Assembly: GCA_025751475.1 (NCBI GenBank)
Contig: JAOWLD010000001.1
Span: 1-64,000, forward strand
Direction of reading: 5' to 3'
Length of the DNA: 64,000 bases
Origin: Rhodobacteraceae bacterium XHP0102
GTDB taxonomy: Bacteria; Pseudomonadota; Alphaproteobacteria; Rhodobacterales; Rhodobacteraceae
Under the pieces are notes generated by a model, which did not search any database, was not told the origin of the DNA, and saw only the letters and a list, made by a program, of their open reading frames with translations. A program made the position numbers and the translations under genes. Below are positions 128-16,015 of the stretch, piece by piece (position 1 is the stretch's first letter; the number at the start of each line of letters is the position of its first letter).

Positions 128-3100
128 CCTTGACGCACCGTGCCGACGATCGTGGCGGTGCCGGAGACGTTAGAAGTCGCCAAATCTATTGTTATTGTTT
201 TCTGGGCAATTTCAGACTGGTTCCCAGCTTTATCTGTTGCGGTGGCCAGGATTTTGTATGTCCCGTCAGGCGGGAAGTCTGAAACTTGCGTCAATTGAAG
301 CTGGGCCCCGGTAACTGACCAAGTACCACTTTCTGATGCTACTACAGTGACTGGTCCGTAAGGATCGTCTTCAATTTGTAAAGAAACTGCCGAACCGGCT
401 TCAGCTTGGCCAGAAAATACCAGGCTGGACAGCTCATCTACCGTGAGAACATCATCCCCCATGAAGGTGTTGAACGACGGTGCGTCTGGTGCTTCAAAGT
501 CAAAAATAATTTTATATGATATGCTGTTGGTGTTGCCTGCAGCGTCAGTGGCAGTCACCGTCTCCAGATATTCACCGCTGACTAAGTCGTTGGCAGTCAA
601 CCCGCTCTGGCCAACTGTCAGGCTGTAGGCATAGAGCGGGGAGTCGTCCGTAAGTTTCGGTGCGAGAACGCCAGAAACTTGTTCGGGGGTGATTTGGTAT
701 GTGCGCGTCGTAAAGGATGATCCAGCATCGAGTGCACGCAATTCGATCGTGATGGTCGCTGTCGGATCATCAGTATAGCCTTGGGAAAGCACTGAGTTTG
801 GATCTGAAAACGCAGCGGTTATCTCGTCTATCGCATCAAGGCCGACATAGTCGTCCTCATAGTTAAAGGTCCATGAGGGATCGATTACAGCGGGCCATCC
901 TGAATCACCGCCATCTCCGATAAGAAGGAACGGCGCTGTAGTGTCTGCCGCGTTCACGCTTTCAACAGCAGAAGTTGCAGCGCTCAAGACTTTTTCTTCG
1001 GCGCCACCGCCATCGGTATAGCTGACGGCGACCGTGATAACCTTGCCAACCTCGTCTTGCGTCAGCGTGAAGGTCCGTTCGGTTGCGCCTGCGATATCGT
1101 TCCCGTCCGCTTTCCACTGATAGCTGAACTCACCAAAACCATCCGGATCCAAAAGAGCCGAGGTGTCCACTGTGAGGACCTCGTCCTCGGTTGCATCGCC
1201 CGTGATGGTGACATTCCCGGTTGGGGCGTCGTTGATATTTTGAACAGGGGCAGTCGTTGCTACTGCTCCTTGCCCGGAAATAATTTCTAATTTGCCTTTT
1301 TGGTCTGTATAACTAACTATCGCTGTTATACTTTTTCCAACATGCTCTTGTGTTAGAAGAAGCGTACTTGCCGTGGCTCCTTCCAGCGCCACCCCACCTG
1401 CTATCCATTGATAACTAAAAGGCCCAAGCCCATCCGGGTCGCTTATGGGGGAAGTATCGATTTCAAGAGTATCGCCTTGAATTGGGTTTAATTCGAATGG
1501 CCAGAAACGTGAATTTATTAGCACATCGCCAATTGGCGGCTGATTTTGGGCCCCAACTATTGATGTTTCCTGACTAATTACACTTTCCGAAGTTCCTTCA
1601 TCATCGATATAGCTGACAGCCACGGTGATGACCTTACCAACCTCATCTTGCGTCAGAGTGTAGGTGCTGTCAGTCGCACCGGCGATGTCAGAGCCATTTG
1701 CCTTCCACTGATAGCTGAGCGTGCCGAGACCATCGGCATCCACAAGAGCGGAAGTGTTGGCGGTCAGAACGTCGCCTTCAGAGGCTGTCCCGGTGATTGT
1801 AACTTCGCCTGTTGGAATGTCGTTGACGTTGGCCACCGTTACGGTCGCAGTGCTTGCGATGGTTTCCAGCGTGCCCTCACGATCGGTGTAACTTATCTCG
1901 ACAGTGATCGCTTTGCCGACCTCAGCCTGGGTCAGCGTGTATGTACTCGCTGTCGCACCCACAATGGCAACTCCACCTGCTTTCCAGGTGTAGGCGAGCG
2001 TGCCGAGGCCATCGGCGTCGGCGAGCGTGTTGTTCGCGATGAGGGTCTGCCCCTCCTTCGGCGTACCAGAGATTGTCACATTTCCTACCGGCGCGTCATT
2101 CACCGCTGCGACGTTCACCGTGACCGTTGTGTCCGCGCTATCGGCTGTGCCGTCCGTCGCTATGTAGCTGAAGCTGGCCGCGCCATTGAAGTTCGCCGTC
2201 GGCGTGAAGGTGATCGTGCCGTCCTGGTTCAGAACTGCCGTCCCGCCGGTGCCCGAGGTCACACTCCTGCTGCTCAGCGTGTCCCCGTCGGCATCCGAGT
2301 CATTGCCAAGAAGATCAGCCGCGGTAAAGGTCACCGCCGTGTCCTCAGTTGCCGTAAGGGTGTCAGCGACAGCCACCGGTGCGTCGTTGACGTTGGTCAC
2401 CGTGATGGCCACCGCTTTCGTGTCGCTAAGGCTGCCTGTGCCATCGTCCGTGGTCGTCACTGTGATGTTGTAAACGTTGTTGGCACCCGCATCCGCAGGC
2501 GCCTCAAAGTTTGGTGCACTTTTGAATGTCACCACACCCGTGCTGGCGTCGATGTCAAACAGGTTGGCGTCTGTACCACCCAGCGTGTAGGTCAGCGTGG
2601 TGCTAGCATCCGGATCAGTAGCTGTCGCCGTGTAGACAGCGCCTGTGCCATTCTCAGCAAAGCTGGCTGTTGCCCCAGAGGTGATGCTCGGCGCTTCGTT
2701 GACGTCGGTGACGCTAACGCTGACAGCCTTGGTGCCGCTCAGGCCACCTGTGCCGTTATCTGTCGCAATGACGTTGAAGCTATAGCTCGACTTGACTTCG
2801 AAGTTGGCTGACGCCTTGAGCGTGACCGCACCCGTGCTAGAATCAATATCTAGGAGCGATGCGTCAGCGCCACTCAGACTGTAGGTTAGCGTCGTGCCAG
2901 TATCCACATCGCTGGCCTGTGCAGTATAGATCACTGTGCTGGAAGCAGCATTTTCTGCAACACTGCCCGTGGCCACAGAGACGATTACCGGCGCATCATT
3001 GACTTCCGCGATATTCACAGTGACCGTCGTGGCCTCCGTGTCTGCGGTGCCATCGGTTGCAATATAGCTGAAGCTGGCTGCGCCGTTGAAGTTGGCCGTC

Positions 3101-5595
3101 GGCGTTAAGGTGACCGTGCCGTCCTGGTTCAGAAGGGCCGTGCCGCCGGTGATCGAGTTCACGCTCTTGATGCTCAGCGTGTTGCCATCGGCATCCGTGT
3201 CATTGCCCAGCAGATCAACGGCGTCATAGGTTACAGCCGTGTCCTCGGTCGCCACCAGCGTGTCAGCGACACCCACAGGCGCGTCATTCACGGCCGCGAC
3301 GTTCACCGTGACTGTGGTGGCCGCCGTGTCTGCGGTGCCATCGGTTGCGATGTAGCTGAAGCTTGCCGCGCCATTGAAGTTCGCCATTGGTGTGAAGGTA
3401 ACCGTGCCGTCCTGGTTCAGAACGGCCGTGCCGCCGGTGATCGCGGTCACACTCTTGATGCTCAGCGTGTTGCCATCGGCATCGGTGTCATTGCCCAGAA
3501 GATCAACGGCGTCATAGGTCACTGCCGTATCCTCGGTTGCCGCCAGCGTGTCAGCGACACCCACCGGCGCGTCGTTCACCGCTGCGACATTGACGGTGAC
3601 CGTTGTGGCCGCGCTATCGGCGGTGCCATCGGTCGCGATGTAGCTGAAGCTGGCTGCGCCGTTGAAGTTCGCCGTTGGCGTGAAGGTGACCGTGTTGTTG
3701 TCGTTCAGAACCACCGTGCCGCCGGTGATCGCAGTAACGCTCTTGATGCTCAGCGTGTTGCCGTCGGCATCCGTGTCATTGCCCAGCAGCTCAGCGGCTG
3801 CATAGGTCACCGCCGTGTCCTCGCTCGCCGCCATGGTGTCAGCGGCACCCACCGGAGCGTCGTTCACGTTCTGCACCGTTCCGGTTGCGCTGCTCTCGAC
3901 CGTCTCAACGGTAGAGCCACCATCGGTGTAGCTCACGGCGATGGTGATGACTTTGCCCACCTCGGCTTGCGTCAGCGTATAGGTGCTGCCAGTCGCACCG
4001 GAGATCGTCGTCCCGTTCGCCTTCCACTGATAGTTGAACGTGCCGAGGCCATCGTCATCGGCCAGTGTGGAGGTGTCCGCAGTCAAAACCTCGCCCTGGG
4101 TCGCTGTTCCAGTGATTGTCACTGCGCCGACCGGAGCGTCGTTAACGTCCGTCACAGTGATTGTGAACGACTTGCGTAGCGTCTTGCCCCCAGCATCGGT
4201 AACATCAACTAGGATATTAAACTCTGGCGTTGTTTCAAAATCTGCCGCCTGCTTCAGAAAGAGCTCATCATCATTTCTGATCTCGAAATACTGCCAATGT
4301 GTCCCATGCTTGACTATTGAGAAGGCGCTTGTGGGCAAATCTGCGTCATCTACTGCCGACAATTTTCCTATAAAAAGATCTTCGGCATTCTCAAGGATCT
4401 CGGTATTCGACAATGAAATAGATACTGGAGCAGCGTTTTGAACCGCCTCTGATACCCTCTCGACGTCAGAAAAAACTACCGACTGGCTTCCGGAGCCCGG
4501 AGCTTCAGCTTCAGCTTGCGATGCTTCCTCAAGCTGCTGCTGAAGAACCTGTGTTGTCGACAGGGCATTTTTAACTTCATCAGAGGAGAGAGAACCGCCC
4601 GTTTCGACAACTTGTGTGACAGTTGTGTCGATGACGGCATTGACATTAATGAGAGCGGAAGACGTAACATCGGCCAGATCGTCAAAAAGGTCGGTGTTTA
4701 GATTTCGATCGCCCTGTTCGTCCAGCGCCAGAAGGTTTCCAGCAACTGCTTGTGAAATTGCACTGATATCCTCAGCGCTTGTAAAATCAACCAGTTCAGT
4801 TGCTCCATCGGCACCTTTACTTGTGACAAGCTGAACAACAGCAGAAAATGCTGCTGACATGGCTTCATCCTCAGTAACACCCGTACCTTCTGCAACGGCC
4901 GCAAAACTTCTTACAGTCGCGACCAATTGCTGGGCTATCACCTCTACCCTAGCAGCCTCGGCATTGTCTGTGCCTTGCGCATAAGGATCGTATTCAAGAG
5001 GATCGACCCCTGCGGGTAGCCCAAGTATCTGTGCAACCTGCGTGGGGGTCAAAGCGCCACCGGATTGCGCAATTATGCTCGTGACTGGCGTAACAACCGT
5101 CGCACCAGCTGGTGCAGTCAGAGTTAGGCCGTCGAGAGCAACTCCAGATGATTGGTCGATTGTGTTAGCAGATGTTGTCGCGATTATGGTCGCTGCCCCA
5201 GCTCCCTCCAAAGTGAATCGACCGTCTGAGTCGGTTGTGGAGGATGGTTCGCCAAGATCAAAAGACCCATTGCTATTTATATCAGCGAAAACAAACGCGT
5301 TCTCTAATGGGCCTTTAACAACCCGACCCAAAAGTGAATTTAGGCCGTCGTCAGCTCCATCACCAGCATCAGTCCCTCCGCTGCGACACGCGGCCAGCGC
5401 CAGGAGCGACAGAGGCGTAAGTACAACAAGTTTTGAGCTCTTGTTCTTCTGGTTGGAGCTTTGCACCTTTTGAGGGCGTGCATCCTCTTTTTCAGTTTGA
5501 TGATCTCCTCTGGGCAGAGGTAGTTCGCATTCAAGAGCAGGACGGCGAAGCGTCGGCATTGCAATTGTGGTTTTATTTCCAATGCGCTCGGACAT
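1..5595 (-). CDS. Giant multi-domain surface/adhesin-like protein, N-terminal part (runs off left edge)
   Basis: An open minus-strand frame of 1865 codons starts at ATG 5595 (GGAG about 10 nt upstream) and is still open at base 1. After about 54 polar residues comes a hydrophobic stretch ending LALAAC (Cys70), which looks like a lipobox. Next is a Sdr/dockerin-like segment with a D-I-N-S-N-G-S-F-D loop, then an all-helical region with VVTPVTSI. From about residue 380 onward it is tandem modules: cadherin-like blocks, four 96-aa Big_9/cadherin-like repeats (ADT..EDTAVTY..LLGNDTDADG..FNGAASFSYIATDGTAD), and about 90-aa Ig-like repeats (YQWKANG..STYTLTQ.EVGKVITVAVSYTD). Proteins of this layout are usually cell-surface or type I-secreted adhesins. 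The C-terminus, where RTX or secretion signals would be, is outside the window. Function is inferred from architecture only. Confidence 0.85.
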   Translation of the reverse strand, partial: MSERIGNKTTIAMPTLRRPALECELPLPRGDHQTEKEDARPQKVQSSNQKNKSSKLVVLTPLSLLALAACRSGGTDAGDGADDGLNSLLGRVVKGPLENAFVFADINSNGSFDLGEPSSTTDSDGRFTLEGAGAATIIATTSANTIDQSSGVALDGLTLTAPAGATVVTPVTSIIAQSGGALTPTQVAQILGLPAGVDPLEYDPYAQGTDNAEAARVEVIAQQLVATVRSFAAVAEGTGVTEDEAMSAAFSAVVQLVTSKGADGATELVDFTSAEDISAISQAVAGNLLALDEQGDRNLNTDLFDDLADVTSSALINVNAVIDTTVTQVVETGGSLSSDEVKNALSTTQVLQQQLEEASQAEAEAPGSGSQSVVFSDVERVSEAVQNAAPVSISLSNTEILENAEDLFIGKLSAVDDADLPTSAFSIVKHGTHWQYFEIRNDDELFLKQAADFETTPEFNILVDVTDAGGKTLRKSFTITVTDVNDAPVGAVTITGTATQGEVLTADTSTLADDDGLGTFNYQWKANGTTISGATGSTYTLTQAEVGKVITIAVSYTDGGSTVETVESSATGTVQNVNDAPVGAADTMAASEDTAVTYAAAELLGNDTDADGNTLSIKSVTAITGGTVVLNDNNTVTFTPTANFNGAASFSYIATDGTADSAATTVTVNVAAVNDAPVGVADTLAATEDTAVTYDAVDLLGNDTDADGNTLSIKSVTAITGGTAVLNQDGTVTFTPMANFNGAASFSYIATDGTADTAATTVTVNVAAVNDAPVGVADTLVATEDTAVTYDAVDLLGNDTDADGNTLSIKSVNSITGGTALLNQDGTVTLTPTANFNGAASFSYIATDGTADTEATTVTVNIAEVNDAPVIVSVATGSVAENAASSTVIYTAQASDVDTGTTLTYSLSGADASLLDIDSSTGAVTLKASANFEVKSSYSFNVIATDNGTGGLSGTKAVSVSVTDVNEAPSITSGATASFAENGTGAVYTATATDPDASTTLTYTLGGTDANLFDIDASTGVVTFKSAPNFEAPADAGANNVYNITVTTTDDGTGSLSDTKAVAITVTNVNDAPVAVADTLTATEDTAVTFTAADLLGNDSDADGDTLSSRSVTSGTGGTAVLNQDGTITFTPTANFNGAASFSYIATDGTADSADTTVTVNVAAVNDAPVGNVTISGTPKEGQTLIANNTLADADGLGTLAYTWKAGGVAIVGATASTYTLTQAEVGKAITVEISYTDREGTLETIASTATVTVANVNDIPTGEVTITGTASEGDVLTANTSALVDADGLGTLSYQWKANGSDIAGATDSTYTLTQDEVGKVITVAVSYIDDEGTSESVISQETSIVGAQNQPPIGDVLINSRFWPFELNPIQGDTLEIDTSPISDPDGLGPFSYQWIAGGVALEGATASTLLLTQEHVGKSITAIVSYTDQKGKLEIISGQGAVATTAPVQNINDAPTGNVTITGDATEDEVLTVDTSALLDPDGFGEFSYQWKADGNDIAGATERTFTLTQDEVGKVITVAVSYTDGGGAEEKVLSAATSAVESVNAADTTAPFLLIGDGGDSGWPAVIDPSWTFNYEDDYVGLDAIDEITAAFSDPNSVLSQGYTDDPTATITIELRALDAGSSFTTRTYQITPEQVSGVLAPKLTDDSPLYAYSLTVGQSGLTANDLVSGEYLETVTATDAAGNTNSISYKIIFDFEAPDAPSFNTFMGDDVLTVDELSSLVFSGQAEAGSAVSLQIEDDPYGPVTVVASESGTWSVTGAQLQLTQVSDFPPDGTYKILATATDKAGNQSEIAQKTITIDLATSNVSGTATIVGTVRQGEVLTVDTSALLDPDGFGEFSYQWKADGNDIAGATERTFTLTQ
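1057..1183. repeat. Exact 127-bp direct repeat, copy 2
   Basis: Identical to 1-127, inside the giant surface-protein gene. The start-to-start distance is 1056 bp (352 codons), so recombination between the copies would delete or add about 352 residues in frame. Confidence 0.9.
2993..3856 (-). repeat. Three tandem 288-bp modules (96 aa each) in the surface-protein gene
   Basis: Units start at 2993, 3281 and 3569 with an exact 288-bp period and are highly similar at DNA level. A fourth, more diverged unit of the same 288-bp length lies at 2093-2380, separated by two cadherin-like blocks. Each unit encodes a Big_9/cadherin-like domain with an N-D-T-D-A-D-G calcium-type loop and an F-N-G-A-A-S-F-S-Y motif. 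Confidence 0.85.
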
Positions 5596-5776: not shown

Positions 5777-6466
5777 TCAAGATTTTGATTCGGTCCGTTG
5801 CTCCCAAGGTAGCGCGGATGGTCGCGCTGAAGTCAGTTCAAGTATTCGCAATATTTTACCTGCGATGAGCACATCTCGGACCCAACCCAGCGCTTGCCAC
5901 CAGTCTTCATAAGCTCGCCGCGCCGCCTCAATCTGCTTCGCATCCGGTCGAAACATCACCGGACAGGCACGCACTTCCACCGTCCGCCACTTCCCGCGCG
6001 ACAGCACTCGCTCAGTGCCCACCACCACGGTCGCTGCATGATCGCCGTGTCTATTGCGCTTCATTTCCACGGGGACACAGCGTGGTACAGCCCCTGGCAT
6101 CCAGTCTGGCGTCAGCCCAGCGCGGGCGAGCTCTGCCACGCGAATGGCCATCCGCTTTCCGCCGAGGTTGTCAGGCATTCCCGCTACAGTGGCCGCAATC
6201 ACTTCGGCGTCTTCGTGGGTGTAGGTGCCCATCTTGTACTGGCCGCCGTCGATTTTGCAGCCCAGCGCCGCCCTTTGCATGAGGACGTATTCGAGACCGA
6301 AGCCAAATCCCTGGCCACGCTCTGGGTCGGGCGGCTCGGGTAGTTCCAACTGGGCATGCTCAACGCGAAACGCCCATTCCAGCGCCTGCTGCACGGACAT
6401 GACCCGCTTCTGTCTCCCCCGACCGGCTTGCCGTGACGTGGTGTGCAATTTGCGATCGTGTTTCAT
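5777..6466 (-). CDS. Hypothetical protein of integrated element (229 aa)
   Basis: Start ATG 6466 overlaps the stop of the preceding gene as ATGA (6463-6466). The open frame continues upstream to 6841, but that stretch is a shadow of the HTH gene. The product has a basic N-terminus (KHDRKLHTTSRQAGRGRQKR), a central Gly-rich segment (GFGFGLEYV) and a Trp-rich helix near the C-terminus (AYEDWWQALGWVRDV). No family recognised. As the last gene of a five-gene coupled operon with a nuclease and a replication-type HTH protein, it probably acts in replication or maintenance of the element. Confidence 0.7.
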   Translation of the reverse strand: MKHDRKLHTTSRQAGRGRQKRVMSVQQALEWAFRVEHAQLELPEPPDPERGQGFGFGLEYVLMQRAALGCKIDGGQYKMGTYTHEDAEVIAATVAGMPDNLGGKRMAIRVAELARAGLTPDWMPGAVPRCVPVEMKRNRHGDHAATVVVGTERVLSRGKWRTVEVRACPVMFRPDAKQIEAARRAYEDWWQALGWVRDVLIAGKILRILELTSARPSALPWEQRTESKS

Positions 6467-7473
6467 CGAATACCTCGTTCGCGTAGGCGCTCGACGGTCA
6501 CGAGGCCCCGGGCCAGCATGGCATCGCGCATGGAGTTGGAGATCGCGCTGACGGGCAGGTAGCGATCGGAGTTGACCATCTCGGCGTAGAATGCGGGCAA
6601 GTCGGTGATTGGCCGCGTTTCGGACTTCGCGGACTTTCGCGCCTTGCTCCGACCACGTGATTTTGCATCCGCCTTGCGCTGGGCGGCGCGCTGCATCACC
6701 CGATCCAGGCCCTTGGGCCCATCTGGCGGCTCGGGGTGTTCCTGGCGGGACGCTTCTGCGGCCTCGAGGATCTCGGCGCCGGTTAGGCAAAGGTCCGTTT
6801 GCCAGCGCCGAACATGTTCCCGGGGCGGCCAGCCCTGCCACCAGCCGGGGAGAGGCCCGTCAGGGTCAAATCCCAGTGCCGCCAGCAGCGATCCGAAAAA
6901 CTTTTCATCGACGATTTCGCGCGCTCGCGCGTCCTCCTCCTCCTTTACTGGTTTACTTACTGGTTCTCTTACAAGGTTACTGTCCGGATTTCGGACACGG
7001 GAATCGGCATTTTCCGGACACGGGTCGAGGGCAAAATCGGACAAGGCTCCGTGTGAGGATTTCGGACACGGGTGCGGGTTATCCACAGGTTTATCCTCAG
7101 AAATGGCTGTGATTTCCGAATCCTCAGCTTCGCCTGTGTGGGTCGCTTGGAAGCCGTGTCCGGATTCCGGACCCGGGACCGCGCGATCTTGGGTAAAGCC
7201 CGGCTCGAAGGCCAAGATGTAGCGGGTCGGCATCTGTCGCTTGGTGCCTGGATTCAGCCGCTGTACGCGGCGGATCAGCCCAGCGCTCTCGAGCAGCGTC
7301 AGGTGGTCATTCAGCGTTGATCGGCTGATCTCGCAATCATGGGCGAGCTGCTCTTGGGATGGAAAACAGCCGAAGTCTGGGTTGAACCGGTCACAGAGAT
7401 GCCAAAGTACGATTTTGGTCGTGGGCTTTAACCCCCGCTGCTGAATGGCCCAATTGGTGGCGGCATGGCTCAT
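6463..7473 (-). CDS. Helix-turn-helix replication-type protein (336 aa)
   Basis: Residues 1-90 form a winged HTH of the HTH_36 type (TTKIVLWHLCDRFNPDFGCFPSQEQLA..EISRSTLNDHLTLLESAGLI), the kind that opens many phage and plasmid replication proteins. The middle (about 95-180) is low-complexity and rich in Pro, Ser and Cys-Pro. The C-terminal part has a conserved-looking LLAALGFDPDGPLPGWWQGW segment and basic linker. ATGA overlaps join it to the VRR-NUC gene upstream (7470-7473) and the 229-aa gene downstream. The low-complexity stretch is where the DNA carries repeated CGGACACGGG motifs and a DnaA box, which recalls initiator genes such as lambda O that contain their own origin. Replication role is inferred. 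Confidence 0.7.
   Translation of the reverse strand: MSHAATNWAIQQRGLKPTTKIVLWHLCDRFNPDFGCFPSQEQLAHDCEISRSTLNDHLTLLESAGLIRRVQRLNPGTKRQMPTRYILAFEPGFTQDRAVPGPESGHGFQATHTGEAEDSEITAISEDKPVDNPHPCPKSSHGALSDFALDPCPENADSRVRNPDSNLVREPVSKPVKEEEDARAREIVDEKFFGSLLAALGFDPDGPLPGWWQGWPPREHVRRWQTDLCLTGAEILEAAEASRQEHPEPPDGPKGLDRVMQRAAQRKADAKSRGRSKARKSAKSETRPITDLPAFYAEMVNSDRYLPVSAISNSMRDAMLARGLVTVERLRERGIR
6981..7177. other. Candidate replication origin: iteron-like repeats plus DnaA boxes inside the HTH gene
   Basis: CGGACACGGG occurs exactly at 6992-7001, 7015-7024 and 7063-7072, with one mismatch at 7168-7177 (CGGACCCGGG). A partial copy lies at 7038-7046 and an inverted CCGTGTCCG at 7154-7162. A perfect DnaA box TTATCCACA lies at 7079-7087, followed 12 bp later by TTATCCTCA (7091-7099, one mismatch). 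The cluster sits in the low-complexity part of the replication-type gene. Origin activity is inference. Confidence 0.4.
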
Positions 7474-7865
7474 GGCGCGACCCTCCCCGTTGGAGAGGCC
7501 ACGCGCGTCGTGACCCCATGATCCGCCAAGGCGCCCAGCGCGTCATCAAGCGATCGTACCGGCGCCCAACCGAAGCCTTGCGCCAGCACAGCGTCTCGGA
7601 ATTCCTCCTGCGCTCGGCTCAGCCGCCCTTTGAGGGATTTCAACTCGAGGAACAGGACCTTGCCATCACAGAGGATGATCAAGTCGGCAAAGCCGGGATG
7701 GACGCCCATCCCCACGAGGATCGCCTGGCGCTTGGCGCCCCGTGGGCCAGCCTCCGTCACCTCATTGGCACAGTGATGGATGATGGCGCCCTTGGGGAGG
7801 GCAAAGCGCAGCGCGGTCACGACGGCGCGCTGCAGATCTGCTTCTGGAGTTCCACGTCGTTTCAT
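7470..7865 (-). CDS. VRR-NUC domain nuclease (131 aa)
   Basis: Start ATG 7865 overlaps the upstream stop (ATGA, 7862-7865). The small protein carries the PD-(D/E)XK-like VRR-NUC pattern: an N-terminal helix EADLQRAVVTALRF, then GVHPGFADLIILCDGKVLFLELKSLKGRLSRAQ. Here the Asp of GFAD and the E-L-K triad are the predicted metal and catalytic residues. Stand-alone VRR-NUC proteins of this size are common in phages and integrated elements and are thought to act as structure-specific or Holliday-junction nucleases. It lies directly before the replication-type HTH gene. Confidence 0.85.
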   Translation of the reverse strand: MKRRGTPEADLQRAVVTALRFALPKGAIIHHCANEVTEAGPRGAKRQAILVGMGVHPGFADLIILCDGKVLFLELKSLKGRLSRAQEEFRDAVLAQGFGWAPVRSLDDALGALADHGVTTRVASPTGRVAP

Positions 7866-8125
7866 GAGCGGCCCTCCTGATCTGGCGCAGGAAGCCGCCC
7901 GGGCGTTTTGGCATCGAGCACGACAAGCAGGATGCGCGCGTCCTCGCGTTCTTCTGGTGTCTCGCCGTGCTGGACCAACACATTGCATGCGAGGCGCACC
8001 AAGTAGTCGGAATGGTGAACCATATCGGCGACCACCATGCGCGCCTCGCGCCGGCGCTCTTCAATCCACTCCTGGCGGACACGGTCCCGGGCGCTGGGCT
8101 TGCGGAAGGGAAGGGGTAGGCTCAT
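7862..8125 (-). CDS. Hypothetical small protein of integrated element (87 aa)
   Basis: Start ATG 8125 was chosen because it overlaps the stop of the upstream HTH gene as ATGA (8122-8125). The end overlaps the VRR-NUC start in the same way. The product is mostly helical and charged (ARDRVRQEWIEERRREARMVVADMV, then LVRLACNVLVQHGETPEEREDARILLVVLDA). No family recognised. Tight translational coupling on both sides supports it as a real gene. Confidence 0.65.
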   Translation of the reverse strand: MSLPLPFRKPSARDRVRQEWIEERRREARMVVADMVHHSDYLVRLACNVLVQHGETPEEREDARILLVVLDAKTPGRLPAPDQEGRS

Positions 8126-8370
8126 CGGCGTGACCCCGCACGTCGTGGCGCAGGGGCTTCCTGCAGCAACAACCATTCCTGCACGGCATCTCGGCGGTAA
8201 TAGATCTTCCGGCCGGCGCGTACGCAGGGCGGGCCGAAGCGGATCTTTTCCCAACGGTGCAGGGTTTCGACGGTGACCCCGAGCTCAAGGGCGAGGTCGA
8301 GGCGGCTGATCCAACCGCTCATCAGGCGCTGAGGGCTATTGGATCGGGGGGCAGTTCCAATGTCTGGCAT
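8122..8370 (-). CDS. AlpA/excisionase-like helix-turn-helix protein (82 aa)
   Basis: Start ATG 8370 has AGGAGAA about 8 nt upstream. The core is a MerR/AlpA-type HTH: LDLALELGVTVETLHRWEKIRFGPPCVRAGRKIYYRRDAVQEWL, with the typical recognition helix and a wing carrying the YYRRDAV..WL ending. Such proteins act as transcriptional activators of integrase genes or as excisionases in P4-type islands. It is the first gene of the five-gene minus operon and stands back to back with the integrase across the 8371-8962 control region, which fits a regulatory or directionality role. Confidence 0.75.
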   Translation of the reverse strand: MPDIGTAPRSNSPQRLMSGWISRLDLALELGVTVETLHRWEKIRFGPPCVRAGRKIYYRRDAVQEWLLLQEAPAPRRAGSRR

Positions 8371-8962: not shown

Positions 8963-10228
8963 ATGGTCAACCGATTGCGATTAAATGATAAAACCGTGCG
9001 CGAGCAGATCCCGGAAGAGGATCGGGCCTACCAGGTTTTCGACACCGAGATACGAGGGCTTTCCATCCGCGTGATGCCCTCGGGCGAGCGGTCTTTTGTT
9101 ATGGATTACCGCTTTGCCGGACGGCAGCGCCGCATGGCGATCGGGCGCTGGCCTGAGTGGAGCGTCACGGCAGCAAGGGAACGCGCCCGCGACCTGCGCC
9201 GCCTGATCTGCGAGGGCACAGATCCCATGGAGGAGCGCGACACGCTGCGAGAGGCACCTCGTTTCAACGACATGATCGAGCGGTATTTGATCGAGCATGC
9301 CTCAACGCTGACGCCTTTGAGCGCGTCTGATCACAAATCATTCCTGACCAAGCTGGTCGCACCGCATTGGGGCAATAAGCTGGTGACCGAGATCACGCCG
9401 CACGATGTGACAAAGCTCTTGAACCTGATTGCAGAGGGCAGGGCGCGACCATCCAAGGCGAAGCCGAACAATCGTGCGCGCAAGCTGCAAGGTCGCAAGC
9501 CAACCCCCGTGCGCGCCAACCGCGTTGGCGAAGTGCTGCGCAAGATGTTTAACCTTGCCATCCAATGGGGCTGGCGCACGGATAATCCTGCCGCTGGGTT
9601 CAAAAAGCGTGTCGAGACCGCGCGGGAGCGCTTCCTCTCCCATGAAGAAATCGGCCGGCTGGCCGAGGTGTTGGATGCGGCCGAGGATCAACGCGCCGCC
9701 GGCATTATACGCATCTGTATGCTGACAGGCGCGCGCGTTGGAGAGGTCCGCCAGGCGCAGTTCGAGCAGTTCAATCTGGAGCTCGGAATTTGGTCAAAGC
9801 CTGCAGCGACCACGAAGCAGCGCAAGATCCACCGGGTGCCGATCTCTGCGGATGTCGCGGCGATCGTGCGTCAGCGGGCGCTCGTTGTGCCCAAGGGCAA
9901 TCCGTGGCTCTTTCCTGGCGATGTGCCGGGCCAGCCCGTCAAGGAAATCCGCCGGTTTTGGGTGAAGGTGCAGCGCGAGGCAGATCTGCCGGATGTACGC
10001 ATCCATGATCTGCGTCACACATTTGCCTCGCTCTTGGTCAGCGGGGGTGCTTCGCTGGAAATGATCGGGAAGCTTCTTGGCCACAGCCAGATGCAGACGA
10101 CCCTGCGTTATGCGCATTTGATGGACTCGCCCCTGCGCGCGGGTGTCGACGCTGTGGCCGGCATGTTCCGGCCACGGCCGAAGATTGTGCATGACGCGGA
10201 TGCCGATAAAGAGGCCAAGCGGGCCTGA
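8963..10228 (+). CDS. P4-type tyrosine recombinase/integrase (421 aa)
   Basis: ATG 8963 was chosen because AAGGAGGT (8949-8956) sits 6 nt upstream; ATG 8957 abuts the Shine-Dalgarno directly. The N-terminal about 80 residues match the DUF4102 arm-binding domain (DTEIRGLSIRVMPSGERSFV..GRQRRMAIGRWPEWSVTAAR). A SAM-like core-binding domain follows, then the catalytic domain with Arg in TGARVGEV, Lys in KQRKIHRVP, His-x-x-Arg in HDLRHTF, His in GHSQMQTT and the Tyr nucleophile in LRYAHL. All catalytic residues are present, so it looks active. This family typically targets tRNA 3' ends, which fits the tRNA-fMet fragment at 15740. Confidence 0.95.
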   Translation: MVNRLRLNDKTVREQIPEEDRAYQVFDTEIRGLSIRVMPSGERSFVMDYRFAGRQRRMAIGRWPEWSVTAARERARDLRRLICEGTDPMEERDTLREAPRFNDMIERYLIEHASTLTPLSASDHKSFLTKLVAPHWGNKLVTEITPHDVTKLLNLIAEGRARPSKAKPNNRARKLQGRKPTPVRANRVGEVLRKMFNLAIQWGWRTDNPAAGFKKRVETARERFLSHEEIGRLAEVLDAAEDQRAAGIIRICMLTGARVGEVRQAQFEQFNLELGIWSKPAATTKQRKIHRVPISADVAAIVRQRALVVPKGNPWLFPGDVPGQPVKEIRRFWVKVQREADLPDVRIHDLRHTFASLLVSGGASLEMIGKLLGHSQMQTTLRYAHLMDSPLRAGVDAVAGMFRPRPKIVHDADADKEAKRA

Positions 10229-10241
10229 AAACGGCGCCTGC

Positions 10242-10838
10242 TTACTTCTCGCCGCGCATGGCGCGCCAGAAGGGGCGCAAACGACGGCGGATGGTGCTCT
10301 CGTCGGGGATCTCCCCGTTCTCGGCCACATCGGCGAACCAGTCCTGAAGATAACCGATCAGTTCGGCCTGGGTCTCTGGAATGCCATGTTCGTGGACGCG
10401 CTTCAGCAGCGCCACATACATGCCTTCCCAGTCATAGGGCGAGAGCGCACCGGTGCCGCCGCCAATGCGGCGCAGAAGGTCATATTCGTCTTCGAACCTC
10501 AGTACGTCCTGACCGGTGATCAAAAGGTCCGCGATGGACACCTCGACCCCATCCGCGGGCTCGGTAACATAGCACCAGTCTTGGGAATGCTCGGGCTTGA
10601 TCCGTTGCAGCTTGATGACCGTGGGGCCGGTCCCGGCGCGGCGAAAGAGGGGCAGCATATCCATTGGCGAGATGGTGATCTTGCCGGAGACCTTCTCGTC
10701 GCCGCAGATCGCGAGAGAAATCCCTGTGACGATATCCAGTTTGCCTTCCGTGGCCCAGCCGCCAATGTCGGCGATGGTGCAGCCCCATCGCGATGCGGTT
10801 TCATGCAGGGTGAAGAATGCTCTTTGAGGTAGTGCCAT
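10242..10838 (-). CDS. Hypothetical protein, convergent with integrase (198 aa)
   Basis: ATG 10838 was chosen (GGAG about 8 nt upstream); an in-frame extension to 10970 has no similar support. The N-terminus contains a possible HTH (FFTLHETASRWGCTIADIGGWATEGKLDI). The C-terminus ends in a basic helix (DESTIRRRLRPFWRAMRGEK) like those of small DNA-binding proteins of mobile elements. No family recognised. Its stop is only 13 bp from the integrase stop, and it is transcribed away from the WYL regulator gene, so its upstream region is shared with that gene. Confidence 0.7.
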   Translation of the reverse strand: MALPQRAFFTLHETASRWGCTIADIGGWATEGKLDIVTGISLAICGDEKVSGKITISPMDMLPLFRRAGTGPTVIKLQRIKPEHSQDWCYVTEPADGVEVSIADLLITGQDVLRFEDEYDLLRRIGGGTGALSPYDWEGMYVALLKRVHEHGIPETQAELIGYLQDWFADVAENGEIPDESTIRRRLRPFWRAMRGEK

Positions 10839-11008
10839 GCGGGCTCCAGTTCTGATGTCGAGGTAGGACAGCGGGCGGCCTGGCAAGTTGCTGACGCCGC
10901 CCAAGTGGCAGCGAGGCAGAAACTCCGGGGTGCAGGCCGCATGAAGCTGCACCCCCGCACTCATGCTCATGCGGCGACTGCCAAATTCTTCAATCGATCG
11001 GCATCCTT

Positions 11009-11023
11009 AGGACGAATCGTCCT
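11009..11023. promoter_or_regulatory. Perfect palindrome upstream of the WYL regulator gene (candidate operator)
   Basis: AGGACGA-A-TCGTCCT has two 7-bp arms around one central base, and ends 52 bp before the WYL start codon. A TATAAC hexamer at 11033-11038 could be a -10 element, which would put the palindrome over the -35 zone. WYL regulators are dimers that bind such inverted repeats, so autoregulation is a reasonable inference. Confidence 0.45.
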
Positions 11024-11075
11024 CTCTCAGGTTATAACCCAGGCACTACGTCAAAAACTGTCGGAGATACCCGCC

Positions 11076-12068
11076 ATGTCGTTCCAAAAGGCACAAGACC
11101 TGTTGAAACTCGCAGGCATGTCCGCCAGCCGGCACGGCGGCATCACTGTAAAGGAGGTCGCCGAAGCGTTCAGCGTGAATGAGCGGACCGCCCAGCGCAT
11201 GATCGCTGCCCTGAAAGATGTCTTCCCAAGTATCTCGCATCAGACGGACAGCCAGCGCCGCCGACGGTGGAAGCTGCGCGACACCAGCATGCTCGGCATG
11301 CAAGGGCTCTACCGCCGGGAACTCGTCGCGCTCGAGGCCAGCATCACGCGGGCTGAGCGGGAGGGCGCGCATATGGAAGTGGACGCGCTTCGGTCCCTGC
11401 GGGACCGCTTGGTGGCAACCTTGCCGTCAGCGCAGGCCCGGAGCATGGAGGTGGATGCTGAGGCGATCCTCGAAGCCAAAGGCTATGCCTGCCGCCCAGG
11501 CCCGAAGGTCAAAACCTCTCCGGCTGTGCTGAACATCGTTTCGACTGCCCTCAGAGGGCCGTTCCGGCTCATCATCCGATACAAAGGGGCGCAGGATGCC
11601 AAACCGCGCAAGCGTGTGATCGAGCCCTATGGGATCCTGCTCGGCACGCGACACTATCTGATTGCTCGTGATAGGGCCAAGGATACCAGCCTGCGCCGCT
11701 TCCGCATGGATCGGATCGAAATGGCTGAGATCACCAATGACTGGTTCGAGAAGGACAAGGACTTCGATCTTGAGGCCTATGCCGCCCGATCGTTCGGGTC
11801 GTTTCACTCGGACGAGGAGTTCACGCGGGTCGTATGGCGGTTCAGCCCAGCCGCTGCGCCGACGGCGCGGGAGTTTGAGTTTCATCCCAAGCAGGAAATG
11901 TCCGACTTGGAGGATGGCGGCTTGCTGGTCAGCTTCGAGGCTAGCGGGCTGGTGGAGATGGCATGGCATCTGGCGAAATGGGGTAGGGAGGTCGAGGTGC
12001 TTGAGCCGGCGGCGTTGCGTGAGATGGTGAAGGGGTGTGGCGCTGAGCGAAACCGAGTGCTTCCATAA
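11076..12068 (+). CDS. WYL-domain transcriptional regulator (330 aa)
   Basis: ATG 11076 has CGGAGA about 10 nt upstream. The N-terminal winged HTH is GGITVKEVAEAFSVNERTAQRMIAALKDVF. The central WYL domain (about 165-245) has the pattern IEPYGILLGTRHYLIARD..LRRFRMDRIEM, with H-Y-L in place of W-Y-L. A C-terminal WCX-like domain (VVWRFSPAAAPTAREFEFHP..GLVEMAWHLAKWGREVEVL) completes the three-part layout. Such proteins (BrxR/CapW and PafC relatives) sense ligands or nucleic acids and often repress neighbouring defence genes. Here it heads a run of low-GC unknown genes on the same strand. Confidence 0.85.
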   Translation: MSFQKAQDLLKLAGMSASRHGGITVKEVAEAFSVNERTAQRMIAALKDVFPSISHQTDSQRRRRWKLRDTSMLGMQGLYRRELVALEASITRAEREGAHMEVDALRSLRDRLVATLPSAQARSMEVDAEAILEAKGYACRPGPKVKTSPAVLNIVSTALRGPFRLIIRYKGAQDAKPRKRVIEPYGILLGTRHYLIARDRAKDTSLRRFRMDRIEMAEITNDWFEKDKDFDLEAYAARSFGSFHSDEEFTRVVWRFSPAAAPTAREFEFHPKQEMSDLEDGGLLVSFEASGLVEMAWHLAKWGREVEVLEPAALREMVKGCGAERNRVLP

Positions 12069-12241
12069 GGCCACCAGCAGACTATCTGGCAGGCTGTCCA
12101 GAAAATTGACTAAAATGTTGCCAAAAATACACAAATAAATATCCAGGGTTAGCCAGAAAATTTGCCAAATATTTTTCCAAATTGGAAATGACAGAACTCC
12201 TGTGTTGGGCGATGGTGTCTTCAGAGTAGGGAGAAAAAGAC
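12069..12241 (+). promoter_or_regulatory. Promoter region of the cargo genes with repeats and a palindrome
   Basis: This AT-rich gap carries CCAGAAAATT twice (12098-12107, 12153-12162), each followed by TTGCCAAA (12118-12125, 12162-12169). A palindrome TTTCCAA-A-TTGGAAA lies at 12174-12188. GGGAG lies just before the start at 12242. The paired motifs look like binding sites for a dimeric regulator, perhaps the WYL protein encoded immediately upstream. The palindrome differs in sequence from the one at 11009. Confidence 0.45.
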
Positions 12242-12526
12242 ATGCAGTCAGACGCGACACAACCTTCATGCGGGATCCGTTTTACATCTCATGCACAGTT
12301 GAGAAGCCAGCAGCGTGGGCTTCGTGAGAGCCACCTCAATGTGGTCTACGACTTTGCTGATCTAGAGCTTCACGTCGGTGGTAGCTGTCGCCGACTGTCG
12401 ATCTCAGGGAGAGAATTACGACGCTTAGTCAAGGAGGGAATGCTGGCACCGAAAGAGGCTGAACGCTGCAAGAATGTCTCTCTGATCGTCGACGGTAGTA
12501 CTTTGATCACTGCTTATCGGCACTGA
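12242..12526 (+). CDS. DUF4258-like small protein (94 aa)
   Basis: ATG 12242 follows GGGAG. The motif FTSHAQLRSQQRGL matches the F-x-x-H-A-x-x-R-x-x-x-R-G start of DUF4258-type proteins, and the rest (LVKEGMLAPKEAERCKNVSLIVDGSTLITAYRH) fits their short beta-rich fold ending in an x-T-x-Y-R/H strand. That family has been grouped with small RNase-like (BECR-fold) domains, but activity here is unproven. It is first in the cargo run, 35 bp before the 551-aa gene. The assignment rests on the short His-Arg motif. Confidence 0.65.
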   Translation: MQSDATQPSCGIRFTSHAQLRSQQRGLRESHLNVVYDFADLELHVGGSCRRLSISGRELRRLVKEGMLAPKEAERCKNVSLIVDGSTLITAYRH

Positions 12527-12561
12527 CTAACCCAATAAATGAAAAAGCTAAAGGTGTAGAG

Positions 12562-14217
12562 ATGAAGCAGGTTAATTCGAAGGCTGAGCTTTTGCTTGCA
12601 AAGCATACAAGCGAAACTATCGATGAATTAATCCGGAGATTCACAGATAAAAAACTAGATCTCGCAGACCGACGGACTGTGGCAATCAATATGGGTAAAC
12701 TGGCTGCAAGCATTAACCCAAAAGATCCTTTGGATGGTGCCAAGAAAATCACAAAAACCGCAGGGATGTTTGACTCCCATTGGGCAAAACGGACACGTTT
12801 GTTTCGGTTTCCAGAACAAGAAGCCGCGACTGATTTAGGCGTTGATCAAGTATACTATGCTGATCCGCGTGTCTTTTTGTCGTTGGCGAAAGCCTCGGGC
12901 AGGTTAAGGAGCGGCTCCAACGACAAGACCTTGCAGGCTCAGGGTGAAAAAGAAGCTATACGGCTCATGCTACAAGGGACTAGTTTCCTGCCCTCATACA
13001 AACCAGAGACGCAGGCGGAACGGTCTTTGGAGGCTATCATGGAGCAATATGGACTTCGCGTGTCGGAGGCCATTAAACAGAGAACTCGTATCAAAGACCT
13101 TTGGGCGACGCTTGAGGCAACTCCTGTTTCTTTGGAGGTTAGTGAAGACCCGCTGCCACCCTCCGTCTATGGAAGTTCTGCAGCATGCCCACAGGAGTTG
13201 CTCCAGCCCGCATACAAAGACTTCATTAAGTATGGTCAATTCACACCTTCAAGAACCTATGCGGATATGGATTGGGCTCAGCCAACAATAACTATTGGCT
13301 ATCTTCTGGTCGCTTATAGGGTGCATGCGCTTAAAATTCCCCATGATAAGGTAGACTTGTTTCCTATGGATTGGGGGAAATTCGAAGGATGTGCCAATGA
13401 AAGAAATCAATGGTTGGACAGCATAGGATTTGACGTTGAAGGCCATCAATTTGCTGACGGTGAGGTTGGAAGAAATCAAGCCGAGCTTGTCCCCGTAACT
13501 GTTGGTTTCATCCACAAGGTTGGGCTGGGGGTGAAGAAGGGATCTGATGGAAGCGCCAAATTGCAGCTTCAGATTTGGCGGGCGTCACGTGACCGTGACT
13601 TTCAAGGCGATACTGATTTCCTTGTCTCGTGTGAAAACTATCAGAGTGACTTTCTAAGTGTGTTCGGGAACATAGCGCGAGATTTTGGCAAGTATGCTAA
13701 CGAAACGGAGGGATTGAACTTGCCAGTCCAAGTTTCGCTTGGTCCAGATTTTGATTACGATAATGAAGATGAATACGCGTTTGATGCTTGGTGTCAGGAC
13801 TATGCTTTTAATTGCTATGTGGCTGAAAGTTGTGTGCCTGATGGATCGACGCCAGAGCGATTTCTTTTCCTGAAAGATGGCTTTGAAGCGGATAACTGGG
13901 CAGAAGAGGATGATTTCGAGGAATATCTGCAGATAGTTAGGCCTGAAGGTTGGCTTGAATCTCCAGGTTCTGCCAAGCTTATGTTTGGGTCGTCAAACAT
14001 TATGTTCTTGCCTGTGCATCGAGAGGCCGAACCGAAAGCCGGTGCCGCGAAAGAGGGCAGCATCGCTGCATCGCTTTTGGAAAATGCCCTAACAGCTGCG
14101 CCAGAGAACCGGATAACACAAAAGCTCATTGAAAAGGTTTCTTTGACGGCTGAAGCTGGTCTAGCTTTCTGTGAAGCGCTCCTAGAGCGCAGCCGCAATG
14201 CTCTTAGCAATATTTAG
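12562..14217 (+). CDS. Unrecognised cargo protein (551 aa)
   Basis: ATG 12562 has AAAGGTG upstream. The long protein is acidic with no signal peptide or membrane segment. An N-terminal helical part (SKAELLLAKHTSETIDELIRRFTDKKLDL) is followed by a mixed region. The middle and C-terminal half is rich in aromatic and acidic residues (DFDYDNEDEYAFDAWCQDYAFNCYV region, split by loops), and the tail is helical and Ala-rich. No known domain or catalytic motif recognised. GC content is lower than in the core genome. It is followed 15 bp later by the T5orf172-type gene, so the two are probably co-expressed. Confidence 0.75.
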   Translation: MKQVNSKAELLLAKHTSETIDELIRRFTDKKLDLADRRTVAINMGKLAASINPKDPLDGAKKITKTAGMFDSHWAKRTRLFRFPEQEAATDLGVDQVYYADPRVFLSLAKASGRLRSGSNDKTLQAQGEKEAIRLMLQGTSFLPSYKPETQAERSLEAIMEQYGLRVSEAIKQRTRIKDLWATLEATPVSLEVSEDPLPPSVYGSSAACPQELLQPAYKDFIKYGQFTPSRTYADMDWAQPTITIGYLLVAYRVHALKIPHDKVDLFPMDWGKFEGCANERNQWLDSIGFDVEGHQFADGEVGRNQAELVPVTVGFIHKVGLGVKKGSDGSAKLQLQIWRASRDRDFQGDTDFLVSCENYQSDFLSVFGNIARDFGKYANETEGLNLPVQVSLGPDFDYDNEDEYAFDAWCQDYAFNCYVAESCVPDGSTPERFLFLKDGFEADNWAEEDDFEEYLQIVRPEGWLESPGSAKLMFGSSNIMFLPVHREAEPKAGAAKEGSIAASLLENALTAAPENRITQKLIEKVSLTAEAGLAFCEALLERSRNALSNI

Positions 14218-14232
14218 AGAGTGAGGCAAATA

Positions 14233-14814
14233 ATGAGCAGAGTTAATCTCTTTGATATCGGCAAAGCTTTCTATCAAAGGTCGCGCCGTGATCCGCAAAG
14301 TAGGATCAAGGAAGAAGCTTACAAGACTTCGCGGGAGTTATGGGAAAACCATAAAACCAAGAGGGAACTCTTAAGCATTATAGCGCGGTTGAAAGATCTT
14401 GAACGTAAATCTCAAGGGGTTCGTGTACCTCAGGCGGAAAAGGCAGAGCGAGCTGTCAGGAGTGGCGAGTATTTTGTTAGTATACCTCATGAGATTTCGC
14501 ATCGCTACAATGAACAGCCTGGCAGGGTTTACATTATGACATCGGCATCAAGACCCGGCGAGTGCAAGTTAGGGGCAACAACGATGAACATGTTTCAACG
14601 GTGCCTCGCCTATCACAAGAAGTTTGGCTACCGCGTGACGGATGTCTTCGCCTTTGAAACCGATAAGCCTTTTGCTTTGGAGAAAATGGTCGCCGAACAA
14701 ATTTCAGAGCTGCGCGTGGCCGGAAATGTGACTGGGGATTCAAACGAATGGTATCGCATCGAGCCTAACCTACTTAGGTCAGTTATCATCAGTGTCGCTC
14801 GAGCAGCCTCATAA
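14233..14814 (+). CDS. T5orf172/GIY-YIG-superfamily domain protein (193 aa)
   Basis: ATG 14233 was chosen with TGAGG about 8 nt upstream; GTG 14221 is an in-frame alternative. A basic helical N-terminus of about 90 residues precedes a C-terminal domain with the T5orf172 pattern: GRVYIMTSASRPGECKLGATT, an Arg in the next helix (MFQRCLAYHKKFG), a Glu in PFALEKMVAEQI, and a terminal NEWYRI. This places it in the GIY-YIG nuclease superfamily, where V-Y-I stands for GIY and K-L-G-A-T for the second strand. It may cleave DNA, but some family members are thought to be binding modules. Confidence 0.7.
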   Translation: MSRVNLFDIGKAFYQRSRRDPQSRIKEEAYKTSRELWENHKTKRELLSIIARLKDLERKSQGVRVPQAEKAERAVRSGEYFVSIPHEISHRYNEQPGRVYIMTSASRPGECKLGATTMNMFQRCLAYHKKFGYRVTDVFAFETDKPFALEKMVAEQISELRVAGNVTGDSNEWYRIEPNLLRSVIISVARAAS

Positions 14815-14839
14815 GAAAAGTTAAGTATTGGATTTAAAA

Positions 14840-15496
14840 ATGAATCCTGAGTTCGTCACGAATTTGGCCGTGGCATGCACCCTCGCTCTCACTGTTGGTG
14901 TTTGTCCGAGCTTCGCCCAGGAAAGATGGGTCGTCCAAGATAATGAATTAATATTTAATATGGGTGTTCCATATCGTGATGCGCCGAACGAGGTTGGGCT
15001 TATCAAAAGGGATGTTGAAGAGTTCAAGCTGGTAATTATGGAAAATCCCGCTGTGGACACCATCGTGGTTTCGGGCCGGGGTGGTTATGGACCTGCCGGA
15101 GATGAGATCGCAGATTCAATCTTAGACTTTGGTTTTCATACGAGGGCATTTGGCGATTGCCTAAGCGCCTGCACAAGAATCTTCTTGGCTGGTGATATTA
15201 GACGCCTCTCGCCTGAGGCTTCACTCGGGTTTCATCGCCCTTACGTGCTTAGAGAGGAAGAGCAGGCATACTATCTTGCTCATCGGATGAATAGGGGATG
15301 GCACGACGAGTTTGACTATGTTGAGTTCATTTATGATGTCGGTTTGGTCGACATGCTGGACAACGTAGAATTTATGGTGTCGCGTAGGGTGGCTTTTGAA
15401 TTTATTGCTCAAGCTTATTCATATGGCAGTTTTGAGATGTGGCGCCCTGAAGTAGACTTGCTCCTGGAAAGTGGGGTCGTCACTGCGCTCGAATGA
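14840..15496 (+). CDS. Secreted ClpP/crotonase-fold protein, COG3904-like (218 aa)
   Basis: ATG 14840 gives a clear signal peptide (FVTNLAVACTLALTVGVCPSFA, cut after SFA-Q). The mature part has the ClpP-like pattern of periplasmic alphaproteobacterial proteins: a strand VDTIVVSGRGGYGPAGDEIADSI, then FGDCLSACTRIFLAGDIRRL with the candidate nucleophile Ser in C-L-S-A-C, and SLGFHRP with the candidate His. It is probably a periplasmic serine-protease-like protein. It is the last gene before the island boundary and lies 25 bp after the T5orf172 gene, so co-transcription is likely. An exported product is unusual in a cargo run that otherwise looks cytoplasmic. Confidence 0.75.
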   Translation: MNPEFVTNLAVACTLALTVGVCPSFAQERWVVQDNELIFNMGVPYRDAPNEVGLIKRDVEEFKLVIMENPAVDTIVVSGRGGYGPAGDEIADSILDFGFHTRAFGDCLSACTRIFLAGDIRRLSPEASLGFHRPYVLREEEQAYYLAHRMNRGWHDEFDYVEFIYDVGLVDMLDNVEFMVSRRVAFEFIAQAYSYGSFEMWRPEVDLLLESGVVTALE

Positions 15497-15739
15497 TCTT
15501 GATGTAAACGTGCTGTTGATAGTTGGCGGGCATAGATTTGGGAGGTGGGTAATCATTGATCGACATGTTTAGGGCTGTCCATGTCAACACCATGTCAACG
15601 AGCGTACGTCATTTTTTGAGTGTGAGGCACGGTGGATGTGGGCCAATTTCAGCGAGTTTCAGGGCTGAAGATTTGTGAATTCAAAGGCTTACCGTCTATG
15701 TATCTGAATTTATTAAGTTATTGAGATCGTTAAATAATG
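15497..15739. other. Non-coding right end of the island
   Basis: No gene seen. The stretch between the last cargo gene and the tRNA fragment is AT-rich near 15690-15735. It contains the tandem direct repeat at 15579-15600 and a GTTTCAGGGC-type motif near 15655. Confidence 0.5.
15579..15600. repeat. Tandem direct repeat near the attachment site
   Basis: CCATGTCAACA (15579-15589) is followed directly by CCATGTCAACG (15590-15600), and an inverted related GACATGTTT lies at 15562-15570. Adjacent 11-bp direct repeats about 140 bp from an att core are typical of integrase arm-type sites. The role is inferred. Confidence 0.45.
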
Positions 15740-15785
15740 GGCTCATAACCTGAAGGCCGCAGGTTCAAATCCTGCCCCCGCAACC
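15740..15785 (+). repeat. 3' fragment of tRNA-fMet gene: attachment-site copy (att) at island right end
   Basis: This 46-bp stretch reads GGCTCATAACCTGAAGG, then GCAGG-TTCAAAT-CCTGC (T arm) and CCCCGCAACCA. It matches the alphaproteobacterial initiator tRNA from the anticodon loop (CAT) to the encoded CCA. Nothing upstream can form the acceptor 5' strand (CGCGGGG), D arm or 5' anticodon stem, so this is not a whole tRNA. Integrases of the type at 8963 recombine at this part of tRNA genes and leave such a duplicate. The intact gene should lie at the other end of the island, left of this window. Confidence 0.85.
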
Positions 15786-16015
15786 AAAATCAAAAAACAT
15801 CAGGTCAAAACGGCGCGCACTGAAACCGAGGTCTATGCACAGTGTATTTTCGCTGTGCCGAAGGGCGCGTGCGCGGCCCATATCTTCGTACTGATTTAGG
15901 GTTACACCTGAGATACGGCGCATTAACTGTGCTTTACCCATTTCATGTCAGATTTGACCGATTGAAAGATCCAGTGCGCGGGGACTTTGGCCCAGAATGG
16001 CCGAACGGCACTGTG
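15786..16015. other. Intergenic chromosomal stretch after the att site
   Basis: This lies just outside the island. An open frame at 15842-16231 runs through it but mostly overlaps the SGNH hydrolase in antisense and lacks a ribosome binding site. No gene supported. Confidence 0.5.

What the first reader, a model, noticed from the sequence alone, without database searches (positions are those of the whole stretch)
11076..15496. Possible undescribed defence or stress module: WYL regulator, DUF4258-like, 551-aa orphan, T5orf172 protein and secreted ClpP-fold protein
A WYL regulator of the kind that represses defence operons heads four short-spaced plus-strand genes of lower GC next to an island end. 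Two encode domains of nuclease-related superfamilies, one is a large protein without recognised domains, and one is exported. I know no named system with this combination.
Basis: partly seen in the sequence, partly recalled or inferred. Interest (0 to 1): 0.65.

Follow-up and report, generated by a model that had tools for sequence, protein, structure and literature searches.

The report
Undescribed nuclease module in prophage defence slot
Three neighbouring genes (a small toxin-like protein, a large protein of unknown type and a DNA-cutting enzyme of changing make) occur together in unrelated bacteria, and here they sit in a prophage slot that in sister phages holds known anti-virus systems, so they are probably an undescribed bacterial immune system.

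Summary
The WYL gene (11076-12068) belongs to the core of an integrated prophage-like element (integrase, 242-aa gene, WYL; GC 61%). It is shared with elements that carry quite different cargo.

DNA alignment with two close relatives shows a replaced segment at window ~12039-15577, GC 47.5%. It holds only the DUF4258-like, 551-aa, T5orf172 and secreted genes and ends about 160 bp before a tRNA-Met att fragment. In related elements of other Rhodobacteraceae the same slot holds CBASS, Lamassu, ShosTA, retron VI, HEC-03, SIR2 and other defence-type genes. It is a prophage defence hotspot.

The 551-aa protein matches no profile library. Only two relatives were found (Planktotalea frisia, 29%; an Azospirillum plasmid, 27%). 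Both sit in the same gene order: small DUF4258-like gene, 551-type gene, GIY-YIG-superfamily nuclease. The nuclease is of a different subfamily each time, with the catalytic G, R and E kept. A motif close to TTGCCARAAWTT lies upstream of the small gene in all three loci.

Best reading: 12242-14814 is a new three-gene candidate anti-phage module with an exchangeable GIY-YIG effector. Defence activity is inferred, not shown.

The parts
12242..12526 (+). Gene A: 94-aa DUF4258-like protein (motif HAxxRxQQR)
   Evidence: Homologues of 26-35% identity in the same position in L004 and L003; weak DUF4258 hits in all three; hhalign 96% to an annotated DUF4258 protein
12562..14217 (+). Gene B: 551-aa core protein, no known family
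   Evidence: No profile match; homologues in Planktotalea frisia (E 1e-55) and Azospirillum plasmid TSH58_p07 (E 6e-26)
14221..14814 (+). Gene C: GIY-YIG-superfamily nuclease, T5orf172/MUG113 type (GTG 14221, or ATG 14233)
   Evidence: Pfam 1e-6; YIG Gly, Arg and Glu shared with the HIRAN-GIY-YIG and LEM-3-like GIY-YIG proteins at the same position in L004 and L003
14828..15496 (+). Secreted ClpP-like protein, probably a passenger of the same slot
   Evidence: PHROG protease hit; not seen beside the other two module copies; R. pomeroyi relative lies in a housekeeping neighbourhood
12118..12173 (+). Two copies of a TTGCCARAAWTT-like motif (12118-12129, 12162-12173) upstream of gene A; candidate operator
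   Evidence: Same motif is the only 0-1-mismatch site in L004 (6558) and in L003 (7573), each just upstream of the small gene; 3 sites in the 64-kb window, 2 of them here
12039..15577 (.). Variable cargo slot of the prophage-like element
   Evidence: L083 and L050 match the window at 89-91% nt up to ~12038 and again from ~15578 through the att, with unrelated DNA between
11076..12068 (+). WYL+WCX regulator: element core gene, not part of the module
   Evidence: Follows int and the 242-aa gene in several related elements with other cargo; GC as in the core
10242..10970 (-). Element core gene, 242 aa, unknown
   Evidence: Found in 24 of 298 sampled family genomes, 23 besides the window's own
8981..10228 (+). 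Tyrosine integrase of the element
   Evidence: Pfam Phage_integrase 1.2e-22 with arm-binding domain; 68-98% identical in related elements
6463..8370 (-). Element core block: replication/HTH protein, nuclease-like gene, small ORF, HTH_17 protein
   Evidence: Collinear in the related elements; HTH_17/excisionase-like hits
15739..15786 (+). tRNA-Met 3' fragment = right attachment site
   Evidence: 100% match to tRNA-Met 3' part in G777 and G292; a tRNA-Met-like sequence sits at the same flank in G778; similar fragments end the slot in related elements

Best explanation
Window 12242-14814 is a three-gene anti-phage (anti-mobile-element) module, carried as cargo in a defence slot of a tRNA-Met-integrated prophage. 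Genes A and B are the constant core. B (551 aa) is the likely sensor or scaffold that recognises infection. A, a small protein probably of the BECR toxin fold, is a small regulatory or toxic subunit and may keep the operon repressed through the upstream TTGCCARAAWTT-like site. C is the effector: a GIY-YIG-type nuclease, most likely acting on DNA, that can be swapped for other GIY-YIG subfamilies while A and B stay. Shown: conserved order, nuclease swap with catalytic residues kept, placement in a slot that elsewhere holds known defence systems. Inferred: defence activity, the roles of A and B, DNA as target, autoregulation.
For: A-B-C order in three unrelated replicons although B is only 27-30% identical to its relatives. 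C is T5orf172, HIRAN+GIY-YIG or LEM-3-like GIY-YIG, the last with a PADLOC hit to PD-T4-3, with Gly, Arg and Glu kept. PF01541 genes number about 2 per genome (36 in 17), so repeated adjacency is unlikely by chance. Slot boundaries by DNA alignment; slot occupants in related elements: CBASS cyclase + phospholipase, PDC-S06, kinase and RmrA-like genes, Lamassu LmuABC, ShosTA, HEC-03, SIR2/PDC-S25, retron VI. The Planktotalea copy lies near a type III restriction enzyme. Shared upstream motif.
Against: Only three copies are known, so co-conservation rests on few independent events. Not every slot holds defence genes: L093 is empty, L088 looks metabolic, L091 and L095 share a gene for which no PADLOC match was found. 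Structure models of A and B were too poor to use (pLDDT 48 and 41), so neither fold is known. The upstream motif was derived after looking. No experiment.
Confidence: 0.62

Rival explanations
1. A toxin-antitoxin or addiction module that stabilises the prophage: A is a BECR-fold toxin, B its antitoxin, C an accessory. Phage defence would be secondary or absent.
For: A resembles DUF4258, listed among BECR-fold toxin families (PMC11980606); self-contained operon with a candidate operator; cargo of mobile replicons in at least two of three cases.
Against: A 551-aa partner is far larger than usual antitoxins; the repeated presence of a catalytically intact GIY-YIG nuclease is not explained; the slot is mostly occupied by immune systems.
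Confidence: 0.15
2. The nuclease is a homing-type selfish endonuclease and the neighbours are hitch-hikers.
For: The GIY-YIG protein of L002 hits homing-endonuclease models; T5orf172 proteins are prominent in a paper on nuclease genes at exchange boundaries between phages (PMC10448857, seen as a search result only).
Against: Three different nuclease subfamilies at the same operon position behind conserved A and B fit an exchanged effector better than independent homing events.
Confidence: 0.06
3. Prophage cargo of non-defence function (lysogenic conversion or stress), with the secreted protein as a real fourth member.
For: Four genes with small gaps share one cargo segment; a few related slots hold non-defence genes.
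Against: The secreted gene was not seen beside the two other copies and has a relative at a chromosomal-type locus; most readable slots hold defence-type genes.
Confidence: 0.1
4. One reading: the WYL regulator plus four genes form one dedicated operon.
For: WYL lies immediately upstream on the same strand; a WYL regulator family co-localises with phage defence systems (PMC9122601, title).
Against: WYL is 91-92% conserved in elements whose cargo is unrelated, is absent beside the other two module copies, and differs in GC.
Confidence: 0.05

Closest known systems
CMoRE / PD-T4-3 (single-gene GIY-YIG type IV restriction enzyme, PMC12923530)
   Same: GIY-YIG nuclease as anti-phage effector; the Azospirillum gene C hits the PD-T4-3 model (4e-5)
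   Different: CMoRE is one protein with its own sensing domain; here the nuclease follows two conserved separate genes, and the window's nuclease is of T5orf172 type
DUF4258 / BECR-fold toxin families (PMC11980606)
   Same: Gene A carries the N-terminal HAxxRxQQRG segment of DUF4258 proteins
   Different: Below the Pfam cut-off; partnered with a 551-aa protein and a nuclease instead of a small antitoxin
Prophage and satellite anti-phage hotspots (P2/P4, PMC9122126)
   Same: Short variable locus (about 1.6-5.3 kb when occupied by defence-type genes) between conserved phage genes, with CBASS, Lamassu, ShosTA, retron and the like
   Different: Different phage family (Rhodobacteraceae, tRNA-Met att); the slot lies between the int block and att
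PADLOC PDC-S57 (candidate T5orf172 system)
   Same: T5orf172-type domain in gene C (4e-4)
   Different: Only the nuclease domain matches; no model covers A or B

Membership tests
GIY-YIG nuclease superfamily (gene C) | GIY-YIG/T5orf172 domain with catalytic Gly, Arg, Glu | tested here: met
   Pfam T5orf172 1.5e-6, MUG113 9.4e-7; G118, R127, E154 invariant with the other two
DUF4258 (gene A) | Profile score over Pfam cut-off | tested here: not met
   13.6, 19.1 and 14.9 bits against cut-off 25 in the three homologues
DUF4258 (gene A) | Sequence similarity to accepted members | tested here: inconclusive
   hhalign probability 96% over 35 of 94 residues; model pLDDT 48
CMoRE / PD-T4-3 | Single protein with N-terminal GIYxY-YIG domain and C-terminal modification-sensing domain | tested here: not met
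   Window gene C has a C-terminal T5orf172 domain (residues 101-189 of 197) and no PD-T4-3 hit
Known defence systems in PADLOC 2.0 | Core protein B matched by a model | tested here: not met
   Best hit for B DndF E 0.026; none for its relatives
Prophage anti-phage hotspot | Conserved flanks with replaced cargo | tested here: met
   window vs L083 and L050
Prophage anti-phage hotspot | Cargo enriched in known defence systems | tested here: met
   9 of 14 slots bounded by an att-like sequence carry PADLOC-matched genes; no formal background rate computed
Prophage anti-phage hotspot | Cargo shown to block phages | not testable with these tools
   needs plaque assays
Toxin-antitoxin system | Toxicity neutralised by partner | not testable with these tools
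   needs expression tests
WYL-controlled defence operon | WYL gene co-occurs with the module | tested here: not met
   WYL absent at L004 and L003; present with other cargo at L045, L050, L083, L097

The most novel reading that the evidence does not exclude
A new anti-phage system whose sensor is a protein family without known relatives, working with a BECR-type small subunit and interchangeable GIY-YIG nucleases under its own operator, carried in an undescribed Rhodobacteraceae prophage defence hotspot.
Probability: 0.5. Interest if true: 0.75.

Novelty: new variant of a known kind. Interest (0 to 1): 0.62.

Why it matters
If true, it adds an immune system whose recognition protein belongs to no known family and whose nuclease is exchanged while the recognition part stays. 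It also supplies a hotspot anchor (integrase, 242-aa gene, tRNA-Met) found in about 8% of sampled family genomes, from which further unknown systems can be read directly; L091 and L095 already share one unassigned cargo gene.

Tried and rejected
Homologue scans of viral contigs (four), phages and plasmids, and of family, order, class and phylum genomes, gave only two relatives of B. The G039 hit (E 1.7e-5) is a two-component-system locus and was rejected. A scan for gene A with A2 in viral contigs and plasmid searches with A and C found nothing. AlphaFold models of A and B were too poor for a fold search, so none was run. PDB profile hits of B were chance. WYL as operon head: rejected. Secreted protein as core member: not supported. 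Promoter and terminator scans found nothing above shuffles.

Full report
What is in the window. The contig is alphaproteobacterial (own assembly 2.68 Mb). Profile searches give WYL+WCX for 11076-12068, a weak DUF4258 trace for 12242-12526, nothing for 12562-14217, T5orf172/MUG113 for 14221-14814, and a PHROG protease trace for 14828-15496. The 551-aa protein has no meaningful relative in the PDB by sequence.

Does the combination recur? Relatives of the 551-aa protein are very rare: one besides the window's own in 397 family genomes (G373, the same locus as Planktotalea frisia L004), one Azospirillum plasmid, none in phages or viral contigs, and no real hit in further samples of the order, class, phylum, genus and relatives of G373. 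In both relatives the gene before it encodes a 92-96-aa homologue of the small protein, and the gene after it a GIY-YIG-superfamily nuclease. The nucleases are of three kinds: T5orf172/MUG113 here, HIRAN+GIY-YIG with a C-terminal hydrophobic stretch in Planktotalea, and a LEM-3-like GIY-YIG that hits PD-T4-3 in Azospirillum. The YIG glycine, the catalytic arginine and the glutamate are kept in all three. PF01541 matches number 36 in 17 genomes, including one long, UvrC-like one in nearly every genome, so finding such a gene directly behind the core every time is not expected by chance; the wider superfamily (T5orf172, LEM-3-like) was not counted, so the true base rate is somewhat higher.

The real unit. 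WYL does not accompany the module elsewhere, and the secreted gene was not seen beside the other copies (the Planktotalea contig ends about 0.5 kb after the nuclease, so there its absence is not fully testable). The 242-aa gene at 10242-10970 marks a family of integrated elements: 24 of 298 sampled family genomes including the window's own, three viral contigs and plasmids. Their core is collinear: a conserved gene matching 5777-6481, replication/HTH gene, nuclease-like gene, HTH_17, integrase and the 242-aa gene, with WYL in some. In about a third of the loci the replication block is turned round. Two relatives (L083, L050) align to the window at 89-91% up to about 12038, the end of WYL, and again from about 15578 through the tRNA-Met att; between lie unrelated genes. 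The cargo segment of the window is therefore 12039-15577, with 47.5% GC against 61.4% for 8981-12068.

What the slot holds elsewhere. Among 14 related slots bounded by a tRNA-Met-like sequence, nine hold genes with PADLOC matches: CBASS cyclase and phospholipase (L087), PDC-S06 ATPase (L083), PD-T4-6-like kinase (L089), RmrA-like gene with a DUF4411 gene (L092), Lamassu LmuABC (L097), ShosTA (L098), HEC-03 with an RNA ligase (L101), SIR2/PDC-S25 (L045) and retron VI (L052). PDC and HEC models are candidates, and the kinase and RmrA-like hits may reflect shared domains only. L050 holds a HEPN/RES-type gene, L091 and L095 share an unassigned 446-449-aa gene, L093 is empty (503 bp) and L088 looks metabolic by my reading. 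This is the kind of prophage hotspot described for P2 and P4 (PMC9122126); a four-term literature search for this family returned three papers, none evidently describing it (they were not read).

Regulation. A 13-base exact match links the upstream regions of the window module and of Planktotalea (2 of 400 shuffles reach it). A derived motif, TTGCCARAAWTT with at most one mismatch, occurs three times in the 64-kb window, twice of these between WYL and gene A, and once each in L004 and L003, in both cases just before the small gene. The motif was found after looking, so it is a lead: it suggests that the module carries its own operator and does not need WYL.

How it most likely works. Inferred: B senses infection, A is a small BECR-type regulatory or toxic subunit, and C cuts DNA. 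DNA is favoured because the alternative effectors carry HIRAN (a DNA-binding domain, own knowledge) or resemble CMoRE, which degrades modified phage DNA (PMC12923530). None of these steps was shown. Models of A and B are unreliable.

Verdict. The module is a candidate new variant of nuclease-based phage defence with a core protein of unknown family.

Noticed in passing
L083:4254-5231, L050 left part, L087:811-3774, L089:1496-3783: A second variable region on the other side of the conserved gene matching window 5777-6481 holds AbiD (L083), a Fic/Doc-like gene (L050, by eye), a type I restriction enzyme (L087) and a methyltransferase with a PRTase-like gene (L089): perhaps a second defence slot of the same phages.
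   Followed up: partly
L091:12782-14131 and L095:498-1835: Two related elements share an unassigned 446-449-aa cargo gene with no PADLOC match, a further candidate system.
   Followed up: partly
L091:14340-14391 and 15783-15829: Two tRNA-Met-like att copies in tandem with one 216-aa apparently secreted protein between them, perhaps a second small integration.
   Followed up: no
L096-L102 and L045: The replication block (HTH_17, nuclease-like gene, replication gene) is inverted relative to the integrase in 8 of 24 loci; the cargo then lies between att and the integrase.
   Followed up: partly
window 1-5595: A minus-strand ORF of at least 1865 aa with cadherin/VCBS-like repeats runs off the contig start; whether it lies in the element is unknown.
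   Followed up: no
L046-L049: Relatives of this WYL regulator on alphaproteobacterial plasmids stand next to or near TM0106 RecB-like nuclease, DUF3883, DUF1156 or AAA genes, and in L049 near a DUF4258 gene.
   Followed up: partly
L004:1-5059: The Planktotalea module lies near a type III restriction enzyme and an ADP-ribosylglycohydrolase.
   Followed up: partly
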